This document shows, piece by piece, positions 6,418 to 12,955 of a stretch of DNA of 46,004 bases. Position numbers and translations under genes: made by a program. The stretch's first letter is position 1, and each line of letters begins with the position of its first letter. The stretch comes from a virus. Location of the stretch: positions 1-46,004 of the IMG/VR virus record IMGVR_UViG_3300015261_000005, one strand, 5' to 3'. Under the pieces are notes generated by a model. The model was given only the letters and a program-made list of their open reading frames with translations. It had not been told where the DNA came from and made no database searches.

Positions 6418-8154
6418 TCAGGCCGCCTTCTTCAGATCGTTGACGGCGCCCTGGATGACGGCATAGAGCCCGCGGTAGATAGCCAACAGGTCGTTCTCGG
6501 CGTAGAGCTTGGCGCCGCGTTCGGTGCTGGCTGGCTTGAAGCCGATCGACTCCAGGCCGTCGGCCGTGATTGACAGCGGGGCGATGCGGGCGTTGATGTC
6601 GCCGAGCTTGACCATGCGGGTGGATGTGGCCGGCGCCGTATCGAAGGGAAGTGGCGATTCCATGGCCCGAAGATCGGATTCGATGGAACGGACGGGGGTG
6701 GGGGCAGGCGTCGGTGCCAGAGCGGGAACAGGTGCAGCAGCCACTACAGGCTCCGGCTCGACCGCAGCCAGGCGCTTAGCCTCAGCATCGACGGCCTCCC
6801 GCTCGAGCTTCTCGCGCTCCTGCTGGCGGATGCGATCGCGCTCGGCTTCGAGCTTCGCCTCTTCGGCCTTCTTGTGCGCGTCGATACGGGACGTCACGGC
6901 CAGCCTGAAGTCTTCAAAGGGCTTGGCGACCAGCTGCTGCATGTCGGCCAAGAGGGCGCGGTATTCCGAAGCGTTCTCGGCGACCCATGCCAGCTTCGCG
7001 CGGATGTCCTTTGCCTGTCGGTCCACCACGATCTTCCCGTTGGCGAGCGCGGTGGCGATCTTGTCGTCGATGCTGGTGAGCGTTTTCAGGCCTTTGATGG
7101 CGCCGGCGAAGTCGGGCGTCACGACGTCCAGGCGAAGGCCTTCGAGGTCGCGCTGAGCCTCGAACAGGTGGTCGGCGAAGGCCGTCCGGGCAGCGGTCAG
7201 CCTTTCCTCGCGGCGGCTGGCCTTCTCCCGCTCAAGCAGCTTTTCGGCCATGAGGCGGTTGTCACGTACCAGCTTGGTGAGCATGTCCTTCTGGCGCTTC
7301 GCCTGGTCGACGCTCTCGATCTGCGCGAGCATCATCGCCTCGGCAGCATTGAGTGTGTCCTCGGCCTTCTTCATAGCCTTGATTTGCTGGTCGAGGTCGA
7401 CGAAGTCCTGATCGGTCTGCGGCTCGCGGATCAGCTTGTTGTCGAGGAAGTCGCGCAGGGCGGTTTCGAACGCGGCGAAGTTCTGGCGGACGGAGATCTG
7501 GCCGAGCACTGTTACAGCTACGGCAGGCAGGGCTTGGACAGGCTCGGCGACGATGTCCGGCTTCTGCTCCGGCAACGTGTAGTCGACGAGGTCGCGATCG
7601 AACTGGGCCCAGCCGTCTACGAGGCGCTCGAACCAGGTTGCGTCAGGCCATACCTCGGTCGAGACGAAGTTCTCCGGGGTGCCGTCGGAGACCGTGAAGA
7701 TCACGCGATCCGCGCCGGTGATCATCATGATCTGCTGGCACTGCGGCATGTGCGAATCGGGAACGTTGCCGGCGGCGACCATCGCGGCAAGTTCCTCGTT
7801 CCACTGCTTGTGCTCGAAGGCGGTGTCGAAGGCCATCGTCAGGCCGTCGCACGATGCCGACAGGTGGCCGCCGACGTCTTCATTGGAGCAGGTGACGGGG
7901 TAGAGGTCGTCCTCAATGAGCTGCTCAACGAGCGGGCGCGCCATCGCTTCGACATGGTGTCCGTAGTCGAGGATGTTCTCCTGCACCCAGTCGCTGAACT
8001 CCTTCGGGTTGCCGGTGTGCTTGACGCGAAGCAGCTCGGAACGCGTAGTTACCTTCGACAGGCCAAGCATGGCCGCGGCCTCGCTGGCGCCGTGGCGTGT
8101 CAGGCGGAATGCGGCCCACTCGTCGCTGCCCTGGACAAGGTTATGGATCTTCAT
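6418..8154 (-). CDS. YqaJ-type phage exonuclease with long C-terminal extension
   Basis: A 578-residue protein. Residues 1-210 match the lambda-exonuclease/YqaJ fold: GSDEWAAFRLTRHGASEAAAMLG near the N-terminus, GHHVEAMARP (about 65-75), SCDGLTMAFDTAFEHK with the catalytic Asp and Glu-x-Lys (about 103-118), and a Gln-rich helix. This family degrades one strand of duplex ends to feed homologous recombination. The remaining 360 residues are unusual: coiled coils, a Pro/Ala linker (about 465-490) and a helical C-terminus. That part resembles DUF1351-like phage proteins and may join the nuclease to a partner. The start shares one base with the stop of the probable annealing gene. Confidence 0.85.
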   Translation of the reverse strand: MKIHNLVQGSDEWAAFRLTRHGASEAAAMLGLSKVTTRSELLRVKHTGNPKEFSDWVQENILDYGHHVEAMARPLVEQLIEDDLYPVTCSNEDVGGHLSASCDGLTMAFDTAFEHKQWNEELAAMVAAGNVPDSHMPQCQQIMMITGADRVIFTVSDGTPENFVSTEVWPDATWFERLVDGWAQFDRDLVDYTLPEQKPDIVAEPVQALPAVAVTVLGQISVRQNFAAFETALRDFLDNKLIREPQTDQDFVDLDQQIKAMKKAEDTLNAAEAMMLAQIESVDQAKRQKDMLTKLVRDNRLMAEKLLEREKASRREERLTAARTAFADHLFEAQRDLEGLRLDVVTPDFAGAIKGLKTLTSIDDKIATALANGKIVVDRQAKDIRAKLAWVAENASEYRALLADMQQLVAKPFEDFRLAVTSRIDAHKKAEEAKLEAERDRIRQQEREKLEREAVDAEAKRLAAVEPEPVVAAAPVPALAPTPAPTPVRSIESDLRAMESPLPFDTAPATSTRMVKLGDINARIAPLSITADGLESIGFKPASTERGAKLYAENDLLAIYRGLYAVIQGAVNDLKKAA

Positions 8155-9289: not shown

Positions 9290-9550
9290 TCAGCCTTCGA
9301 AGTTGACCCGGCGATACGGGTGCTTATCGGTCGCGGACTTGATGTGCTTGCCGAAGTGCGAACCGATGGACTCCGCGCCCTGGAATGCGGCGAAGTCGTC
9401 AGCGGTGAAGTTGTCGTAGTGGTAGAGGCTGCCGGGCTCGCCCTTGCTGTTCTTGAAGCGGATGGCGAGGGTGTTGCTTGCAGCGTCGTGGCCGATGCTG
9501 TGGATCTGCGAGGATTCCACGGGCACGAGCGCGATCTGGTGGGTCGTCAT
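9290..9550 (-). CDS. KTSC-domain protein
   Basis: An 86-residue protein whose core (IHSIGHDAASNTLAIRFKN, then GSLYHYDNF and AAFQGAESIGSHFGKHIK) matches the small KTSC domain family, of unknown function. The ATG at 9550 is chosen for its AAAGGAA ribosome site. Just upstream, a hairpin of GCCGGC arms (9564-9578) could hide that site. The frame stays open much farther upstream, but that part overlaps the structured RNA described separately. Gene and RNA leader probably form a unit. Confidence 0.85.
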   Translation of the reverse strand: MTTHQIALVPVESSQIHSIGHDAASNTLAIRFKNSKGEPGSLYHYDNFTADDFAAFQGAESIGSHFGKHIKSATDKHPYRRVNFEG

Positions 9551-9695
9551 TGCGAATTCCTTTGCCGGCGCTGCCGGCGTGTGGTTAGAGGTGGCAGAGA
9601 CCGGGCTCGACACCGGCTTAGTGGCCCCGCATCCGCGGTACTCGTGTTCGGCTGCTATTTCTTGGGTTGCGTGTCCGTCCACGCCGCTCTGCCGT

Positions 9696-9804
9696 ACAAA
9701 GAAACCCACTGACCTGCCTATCAGGCTTGCCCATCGACTCGGCGTGTAGCCCGCGTTATGCGGTTTCGATGGATCTGTGGTGCACCACCAGTGGGCTTCT
9801 TTGT
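9696..9804 (-). ncRNA. Candidate structured RNA, four-way junction, upstream of KTSC gene
   Basis: A closing stem of 16 pairs joins 9789-9804 and 9696-9711, with one U-G pair on the minus strand that would be an A-C mismatch on the plus strand. Inside it are three hairpins: the palindrome 9777-9788, a 7-bp stem (9766-9772 with 9731-9737) enclosing a CCGC/GCGG hairpin (9751-9763), and a CCTG/CAGG hairpin (9713-9725). Together they form a four-way junction. It lies in the roughly 280 bases between a small basic gene and the KTSC gene. I do not recognise a known RNA class. It could be a leader element, a small RNA or a processing signal. Confidence 0.6.
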
Positions 9805-9833
9805 GCCCCGTGCTACTCCACGGGGCGGGGAAC

Positions 9834-9974
9834 TCACCTTGCGCGGCGCTTTGCCTTGCGCTTCGCGATCCTTGCTGCGGCACGCAGAGAGCGAGCCGTG
9901 TTGTGCTTGCTGATGCGTCGGGTAGGCATCCAGAGCGGCTGGGCTGCGTTCTCGGTGGAAGGGTTCTGCAACAT
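9834..9974 (-). CDS. Small highly basic protein, 46 aa
   Basis: The ATG at 9974 has a GAAGGA ribosome site about eight bases upstream. An internal Met (9929) lacks one. The C-terminal 30 residues are packed with Arg, Lys and Ala and should form a basic helix, so nucleic acid binding is likely. It lies directly upstream of the structured RNA. Antitermination proteins of the N type are small Arg-rich peptides, but there is no specific evidence for that here. Confidence 0.5.
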   Translation of the reverse strand: MLQNPSTENAAQPLWMPTRRISKHNTARSLRAAARIAKRKAKRRAR

Positions 9975-10016
9975 GGGTAATCCTTCGGTTGGGCCGCTCT
10001 GTGCGGCGTGTTGTGA

Positions 10017-10154
10017 CTAGTGGCCGGTAGCGAGCGCAATGAGCGTCGTGATCGCCACTAGGCCGAGGTAGACGCCGATGAACTGCCACTCGGCGCGGGT
10101 GATCGGCCTGCGCGCGTGGGCGGTAGCGCGGATGTGGGCGAGGTAGTCGTTCAT
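10017..10154 (-). CDS. Small single-pass membrane protein, 45 aa
   Basis: The frame starting at 10154 overlaps the upstream stop as ATGA. A basic N-terminal part (His, Arg) precedes a hydrophobic segment at about residues 24-43, predicting one membrane helix with the N-terminus in the cytoplasm. Early-operon membrane peptides in phages are often host-interacting. No specific role can be read from the sequence. Confidence 0.6.
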   Translation of the reverse strand: MNDYLAHIRATAHARRPITRAEWQFIGVYLGLVAITTLIALATGH

Positions 10155-11470: not shown

Positions 11471-11499
11471 ACGATATGTCATCAACGCATATGCGTCAA
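11471..11499 (-). promoter_or_regulatory. Leftward early promoter (PL-like) with CI operator
   Basis: On the minus strand, TTGACG (11494-11499) and TATCGT (11471-11476) are separated by exactly 17 bases. The operator core 11485-11496 (ACGCATATGCGT) overlaps the -35 box, so repressor binding would block RNA polymerase. The whole minus-strand series down to int could be read from here. Confidence 0.7.
11485..11496. promoter_or_regulatory. Operator, left copy (CI/Cro site)
   Basis: A perfect 12-bp palindrome ACGCATATGCGT. A near copy at 13002-13013 differs at one base. The two sites lie over the two early promoters flanking the repressor region, as expected for shared repressor operators. Confidence 0.7.
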
Positions 11500-12250: not shown

Positions 12251-12955
12251 CTAATTTTGGTCGTCGAAGCTTTCTTCGGCACGGCCCACGACGGTGCCGC
12301 AGTAGGTCATCGGCTCGTCGACGGGGATCACGGGGAACTGAGGATTGAGGGGCACGAGCATGCGGCGGCCCGCGTCCTCTATGTACTGCTTGAAGGTGGT
12401 CTCGGCTTCGTCCGACAGTCGCGCCACGACCATGGCGCCGCTTCGCAGCTCTCGGGCAGGATCCACGATGATGATCGTGCCATCGGGGAACGATCGACGG
12501 TCATCCCTAGGGTTGTTCATCGAGTTGCCATGCACCTCTAGGGCATAAGCCAGGCGGCCAACCTTCAGCGACGTCTGGATCATCCGCTTGCCGGTGCCGC
12601 GGGCATAGGAATCGACAGCTTCCGCAAAAGATCCTGCCTCAACCCAGCTGATCAGGGGTACATGCCGGACCCCGAGTGCTTGCGTGAGCTGGAACGCGGT
12701 AGCTGCTTCGTCGACCTCGGCGCCAGCGGCTTCGGCATCCAGATAGATGCGACCGGCGGTCGTTTGGAGCGCCTTGGCCAGGGCAACCAGCTTGCTATGA
12801 GGAATGTCCTGCATCCCCCGTTCCATTCGCGAGATGTTTCCCTGCTCCAGGCCCGACGATTCCGCCAGCTGAGCCTGGTTGAGGTTGAGATGCGTGCGGC
12901 GGCGCCGAATGGCGTCCCCCAAGGCTTTGAGGTCTGTCATATGCATAGTCTGCAT
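12251..12955 (-). CDS. cI: CI-type repressor, LexA-like self-cleaving
   Basis: A 234-residue lysogeny repressor. An N-terminal XRE helix-turn-helix (about 9-66, with LNLNQAQLAESSGLEQGNIS) binds the operators. The C-terminal S24 peptidase domain has the cleavage site A107-G108 (in SWVEAGSF), nucleophile S145 (HGNSM) and general base K189 (TTFKQY). RecA-stimulated self-cleavage should cause induction after DNA damage. The start could be any of three nearby Met codons and none has a strong ribosome site. It is read from a promoter overlapping the cro promoter. Confidence 0.92.
   Translation of the reverse strand: MQTMHMTDLKALGDAIRRRRTHLNLNQAQLAESSGLEQGNISRMERGMQDIPHSKLVALAKALQTTAGRIYLDAEAAGAEVDEAATAFQLTQALGVRHVPLISWVEAGSFAEAVDSYARGTGKRMIQTSLKVGRLAYALEVHGNSMNNPRDDRRSFPDGTIIIVDPARELRSGAMVVARLSDEAETTFKQYIEDAGRRMLVPLNPQFPVIPVDEPMTYCGTVVGRAEESFDDQN

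What the first reader, a model, noticed from the sequence alone, without database searches (positions are those of the whole stretch)
9551..9833. Four-way-junction RNA upstream of a KTSC-domain gene
About 280 bases of the tightly packed leftward operon hold no convincing gene but form an RNA with a 16-pair closing stem (9789-9804/9696-9711) and three internal hairpins (9777-9788, 9731-9772, 9713-9725). The one imperfect pair of the closing stem is U-G on the minus strand but A-C on the plus strand, matching the transcribed strand. A further hairpin (9564-9578) lies next to the KTSC ribosome site. This could be an unnamed phage RNA or leader paired with a protein domain of unknown function.
Basis: partly seen in the sequence, partly recalled or inferred. 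Interest (0 to 1): 0.75.

Follow-up and report, generated by a model that had tools for sequence, protein, structure and literature searches.

The report
New pseudoknot RNA in phage operons
A non-coding stretch in a prophage's early operon carries a previously undescribed RNA, a pseudoknot set directly on a long helix whose tip is freely exchanged between phages, and it recurs in prophages of one bacterial family where it probably helps the phage control its own early messenger RNA.

Summary
About 26 distinct relatives were found in viral contigs and Rhodanobacteraceae genomes. In them the 16-bp closing stem is conserved by base pairing, not by sequence: 96.8% of cells pair and 14 of its 16 pairs show two-sided changes. 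The "four-way junction" is not conserved. Once the closing stem is removed, the tips fold no better than shuffled sequence (mean z -0.2), and they are swapped between otherwise near-identical phages. It is a hairpin (9805-9826) whose loop pairs with four bases just upstream (9829-9832), an H-type pseudoknot, in 25 of 25 testable copies, stacked directly on the closing helix. The KTSC link is coincidental: 3 of about 26 copies. Elements sit once per phage (two phages carry two) in the leftward early operon, usually 1-5 nt after a stop codon, before unrelated genes. There is no Rfam match and no blastn match in public phage records. Function is inferred: most likely a cis-acting early-mRNA element read by a host factor, perhaps put-like. 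mRNA processing or stability is the main rival.

The parts
9829..9832 (-). S1a: 5' strand of the pseudoknot helix (UUCC; CUCC, CUCG or GCCC in relatives)
   Evidence: Pairs fully with the hairpin loop in 25 of 25 elements at this offset; mean 0.5 and at most 3 of 25 at other offsets; 8 two-sided changes at one pair
9805..9826 (-). Conserved hairpin GCCCCGU-GGAG-UAGC-ACGGGGC: S2 stem 9820-9826/9805-9811, loop segment S1b 9816-9819 pairing with S1a, L3 9812-9815
   Evidence: 7-bp stem 100% paired in 26 distinct sequences, with a C-G/U-A double change; alignment A5
9789..9804 (-). Clamp helix, 5' strand (ACAAAGAAGCCCACUG), directly abutting S2 with no spacer
   Evidence: 14 of 16 pairs show two-sided changes, 95.4% of cells paired
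9712..9788 (-).
   Evidence: z = -1.2 here, mean -0.2 over 22 caps; caps unrelated between relatives with similar flanks
9696..9711 (-). Clamp helix, 3' strand (CAGUGGGUUUCUUUGU)
9593..9693 (-). Optional second domain, closed by GGCAGAG (9687-9693) with CUCUGCC (9593-9599)
   Evidence: Separately closed domains in L214, L022, L237, L238, L227, L218 and L232 with different stem sequences; absent in L006, L217, L223, L226, L229 and L219
9564..9578 (-). Hairpin GCCGGC-AGC-GCCGGC just upstream of the KTSC ribosome site
   Evidence: Present before KTSC in relatives without the RNA (L001, L002, L003, L007, L009)
9290..9550 (-). KTSC-domain gene (86 aa), downstream neighbour; not a partner of the RNA
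   Evidence: PF13619, E = 5.2e-16
9834..9974 (-). Small basic ORF (46 aa, net charge +12) whose stop codon lies 1 nt before the pseudoknot
   Evidence: phrog_29852 (unknown function), E = 4.6e-6; charge; spacing
9586..10003 (-). Accessory cassette (small ORF, RNA, second domain) absent from closely related phages
   Evidence: L001 and L003 align up to 10004 and again from 9585/9591
11471..11499 (-). Candidate promoter of the leftward early operon (TTGACG-17-TATCGT), about 1.6 kb upstream
   Evidence: Consensus scan only; 2 sites found against 3.6 expected

Best explanation
The region encodes a structured RNA of the leftward early-operon transcript. It is an H-type pseudoknot (S1 4 bp, L1 2 nt, S2 7 bp, no L2, L3 4 nt) stacked without a gap on a 15-22 bp clamp helix whose base is conserved (ACAAG/CUUGU). 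The tip of the clamp is an unconstrained, exchangeable cap. Shown here (computationally): the structure, the strand, the family, its narrow distribution and its place in the operon. Inferred: it acts in cis on the early transcript and is read by a host factor, since no shared phage protein was found near it. My first choice is a put-like role, in which the nascent RNA binds the transcription machinery and keeps it moving through the early operon.
For: Pairing conserved without sequence conservation in the clamp. Pseudoknot pairing in 25/25, found after a model was built without it. G-U over A-C bias 24:5 for the sense strand. Nearly invariant sequence in S2, L3 and the clamp base, the pattern of sequence-specific recognition. 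One copy per phage in all but two viral records, in the leftward early operon wherever the neighbourhood was read. The 5' strand starts 1-5 nt after a stop codon in 16 of 25, with mostly unrelated upstream genes, that is, in untranslated RNA. Downstream genes are unrelated, so control is not gene-specific. No protein family near the element is shared by all. Caps carry no structural signal of their own, so the pseudoknot and clamp are the working part. HK022 putRNA is a precedent for a protein-independent, cis-acting early-operon RNA of two adjacent stems (PMC9378689).
Against: No enrichment of intrinsic-terminator-like sites downstream of the element (15 in 106 kb, against 7 in 39 kb upstream). 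It lies about 0.6-2.5 kb into the operon rather than at its start, and no second copy was found in the rightward operon, whereas HK022 has putL and putR. There are no expression data. The L219 group has a loop L3 of only 1 nt, tight for a classical pseudoknot. The element is dispensable: close relatives lack it.
Confidence: 0.37

Rival explanations
1. mRNA processing or stability element. The pseudoknot and clamp, set right behind a stop codon, protect the 3' end of the upstream message or present a double-stranded RNase III-type cleavage site that separates upstream and downstream parts of the operon.
For: Position 1-5 nt after stop codons. S2 plus clamp make about 22 or more stacked base pairs. 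Further stable domains and a ribosome-site hairpin follow. Cap sequence is irrelevant.
Against: Near-invariant sequence of S2, L3 and the clamp base is not needed for a mere barrier or a dsRNA cut site. Only one such element occurs per operon.
Confidence: 0.3
2. Trans-acting RNA. The pseudoknot and clamp are a scaffold that displays or releases an exchangeable cap, which acts as a decoy, small RNA or specificity determinant against host or competing phages.
For: Caps are replaced within otherwise about 97-98% identical sequence (L018/L019). Identical caps occur in phages with 77% identical flanks (L229/L284). A tRNA T-loop-like sequence lies in the L217/L225 cap.
Against: Caps alone are no more structured than shuffles. 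No better complementarity to their own operon than to other phages'. No tRNA found by ARAGORN or Rfam.
Confidence: 0.2
3. A DNA-level element: the inverted repeat acts as single-stranded DNA, for example as a recombination or mobile-element end, explaining cap exchange.
For: Conserved ends with a variable middle; cap exchange; cassette absent from relatives.
Against: Sense-strand G-U bias 24:5. Consistent orientation with transcription. A pseudoknot joined to the clamp. Essentially one copy per phage.
Confidence: 0.06

Closest known systems
HK022 put RNA (phage antiterminator RNA)
   Same: Phage RNA of two directly adjacent structured stems in the early-operon transcript; no phage protein needed (for put: PMC9378689)
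   Different: put is about 70 nt, two stem-loops with a G at the bifurcation and a triplex in stem I, in both early operons. Here there is an H-type pseudoknot with no spacer before the clamp, a variable cap, and only the leftward operon. No activity shown.
Lambda nut sites (boxA/boxB)
   Same: Hairpin in untranslated early leftward-operon RNA
   Different: No boxA enrichment (37 matches against 46 expected), no N-like protein found shared by the family, and the loop is tied up in a pseudoknot
c4/P4 CI antisense immunity RNAs
   Same: Structured RNA in an early phage operon with variable parts
   Different: No complementarity to own operon above background; no Rfam match
Type III toxin-antitoxin RNAs (ToxI) and AbiF RNAs
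   Same: H-type or pseudoknotted RNAs in phages and plasmids (own knowledge)
   Different: Not tandem repeats here, no toxin gene recognised next to it, no Rfam match

Membership tests
Any Rfam 15 family | Score at or above the family's model threshold | tested here: not met
   No gathering-score match in the window; none at E<=1 for 20 element loci apart from a chance-level viral match outside the element; none at E<=5 for 9400-10100
HK022 put | Two adjacent stem structures in early-operon RNA | tested here: met
   Pseudoknot hairpin directly followed by clamp helix in the early operon
HK022 put | Simple stem-loops separated by a nucleotide at the bifurcation, about 70 nt | tested here: not met
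   Zero-nucleotide junction, H-type pseudoknot, variable cap
HK022 put | Copies downstream of both early promoters | tested here: not met
   One site per record, or two in tandem, in the same operon
HK022 put | Suppression of termination through the RNA polymerase beta' zinc-binding domain | not testable with these tools
   Needs transcription assays
Lambda nut | boxA next to a boxB hairpin | tested here: not met
   No boxA next to the element; no excess in the window
c4-type antisense RNA | Loops complementary to a target in the same operon | tested here: not met
   Self complementarity equals non-self over 18 elements
tRNA or tRNA-like | Recognisable cloverleaf with canonical features | tested here: not met
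   ARAGORN none; Rfam none
KTSC-associated leader RNA | Conserved linkage with KTSC genes | tested here: not met
   KTSC follows 3 of about 26 elements; only L006 and L022 of the KTSC loci searched besides the window carry it

The most novel reading that the evidence does not exclude
A new architecture of phage RNA in which a constant pseudoknot and clamp act as a docking module for an exchangeable, rapidly evolving cap. Separately evolved versions (L018/L019-type, L017, L053) would exist in other phages, and cap choice would matter in phage-host or phage-phage conflict.
Probability: 0.15. Interest if true: 0.85.

Novelty: new variant of a known kind. Interest (0 to 1): 0.6.

Why it matters
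It defines an RNA family that Rfam lacks, with an unusually clear pseudoknot signal, in a part of phage genomes (the early operon) where very few RNA-only control elements are known. If it acts like put, it would be an unrelated solution to protein-free control of host RNA polymerase. The compact, sequence-constant core and the free cap make it easy to test by mutation.

Tried and rejected
Four-way junction as conserved feature: rejected, caps differ between subfamilies and carry no structural signal. KTSC partnership: rejected. tRNA-like reading of the L217/L225 cap (GGTTCGAATCC) and of the window's second domain (ending CUGCC-ACC): not supported by ARAGORN or Rfam. Antisense immunity RNA: no self-target. 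Protein-coding explanation: no frame open in all, lengths not multiples of three. boxA/nut: no. Shared RNA-binding phage protein: none among genes near the element. Terminator enrichment as support for antitermination: none. Published phage records (INPHARED): no blastn match for the window region, and only short chance-level matches for the conserved 5' part. Genome search hits with E above 1e-3 were inspected and look like chance. The descriptor scan had a high background (24 hits against 18 in reversed sequence), so the sister elements in other phages rest on individual inspection, not on the scan. One fuzzy-match script timed out.

Full report
OBSERVATION. Rfam has nothing like it. The window is a virus record with a prophage layout: integrase (98-1207), RecE-like exonuclease (6418-8154), S24-type repressor (12251-12955), terminase and tail sheath genes. 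The stretch is a large gap in an otherwise tightly packed part of the leftward early operon.

RELATIVES. Phages that encode close KTSC relatives showed two with the same RNA, L006 and L022, and a pattern search of genomes gave a third, L214 (Rhodanobacteraceae bacterium ZG21-1). These four gave an alignment with a hand-set structure in which the 16-pair stem pairs without gaps, with 8 pairs changed on both sides. A covariance model then found 8 of 234 genomes of the same family, and pattern scans added about 20 viral contigs. In the 26 distinct sequences 96.8% of cells pair, 15 of 23 pairs show two-sided changes, and all shuffles and slid controls fall well below. Samples from the order and class gave nothing convincing outside the family; a more sensitive rerun on the family found no further convincing genomes.

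THE PSEUDOKNOT. The hairpin just 5' of the stem (9805-9826) is the best conserved part. Its loop segment GGAG, CGAG or GGGC is matched by CUCC/UUCC, CUCG or GCCC exactly two bases upstream of the hairpin stem. This holds in 25 of 25 elements; at 189 other offsets the mean is 0.5 and the maximum 3. The model used to find the family did not contain this strand, so the test is independent of the search. Geometry (4 bp, 2 nt, 7 bp, 0 nt, 4 nt) fits a classical H-type pseudoknot, by established knowledge of such folds. The L219 group has a shorter loop and is less certain. S1 type (CUCC or CUCG) and the S2 variant (GCCCC or GCCCU) occur in all four combinations, so the changes are not a single event.

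THE CAP. With the clamp removed, 22 caps have a mean z of -0.2 (standard error 0.17). Caps are exchanged: L018 and L019, carrying a sister version, are 97-98% identical on both sides with unrelated caps, and L229 and L284 share an identical 85-nt cap while their upstream flanks are 77% identical. One subfamily keeps cap-side pairs by compensatory change, so part of the extended clamp is still under selection.

CONTEXT. Elements occur once per phage (two tandem copies in G886 and G888), within the leftward early operon about 0.6-2.5 kb from its start, and start 1-5 nt after a stop codon in 16 of 25. The following genes are mostly unrelated. No nearby protein family is shared by all; the broadest cluster, 11 of 16, lies 3-6 kb upstream near the presumed repressor region and was not identified. 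In the window the RNA belongs to a 418-bp cassette (9586-10003) that relatives L001 and L003 lack. A second closed domain (9593-9693) follows in some members, closed by different stem sequences.

STRAND AND CODING. Stems hold 24 G-U and 5 A-C/C-A cells, and the sense strand folds better in 17 of 21, which supports RNA of the transcribed strand. No reading frame is open in all members.

MECHANISM. Conservation is concentrated in S2, L3 and the clamp base, with a cap free to change. I take the pseudoknot and clamp as the part that is recognised, in cis, in untranslated RNA. The absence of a shared nearby phage protein points to a host factor. A put-like effect on transcription is my first choice, by analogy with HK022 (PMC9378689); it is not a member of that family. 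Terminator placement does not support it. An mRNA processing or stability role is nearly as likely. A trans-acting cap is less likely because caps lack structure and self-targets, but cap exchange keeps it open.

SISTER ELEMENTS. L018/L019 (position about 6445), L017 (5249) and L053 (5500) show the same layout with different sequences; L063 and L075 share the L018-type clamp with another 5' hairpin. The scan that found the first ones has a high background, so these are leads.

Noticed in passing
L018:6445-6611 and L019:6445-6617; also L017:5249, L053:5500, L063:6376, L075:6601: Possible sister elements with the same layout but other sequences in other KTSC-bearing phages; in L018/L019 the cap alone is replaced between 97-98% identical flanks.
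   Followed up: partly
window 9834-9974: 46-aa, strongly basic peptide (net charge +12, arginine-rich end) ending 1 nt before the RNA; phrog_29852, unknown function. L226 also has a basic ORF (+11) in this place, most others do not.
   Followed up: partly
window 9593-9693; L214, L022, L237, L238, L227, L218, L232: Optional second RNA domain with its own closing stem of differing sequence; L004 has parts of it without the pseudoknot and clamp.
   Followed up: partly
L217, L225, L233, L236 caps: Cap contains a tRNA T-loop-like GGTTCGAATCC and one compensated pair between two versions (CCAAGG/CCUUGG, CCGAGG/CCUCGG); no tRNA predicted in L217.
   Followed up: partly
L227:971-1405 and L231:339-773: Two elements of this family in tandem, 318 bases apart, with different caps.
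   Followed up: no
window 9564-9578 and the same place in L001, L002, L003, L006, L007, L009: A short GC-rich hairpin followed directly by an AAGG-type ribosome site and a start codon, preceded by ACACGCCG-like repeats that also bound the inserted cassette.
   Followed up: partly
L280 and L293, about 0.5-1.8 kb downstream of the element: Repeated terminator-like hairpin (GCGGGTTCKTCCCGC then T-rich) between early genes.
   Followed up: no
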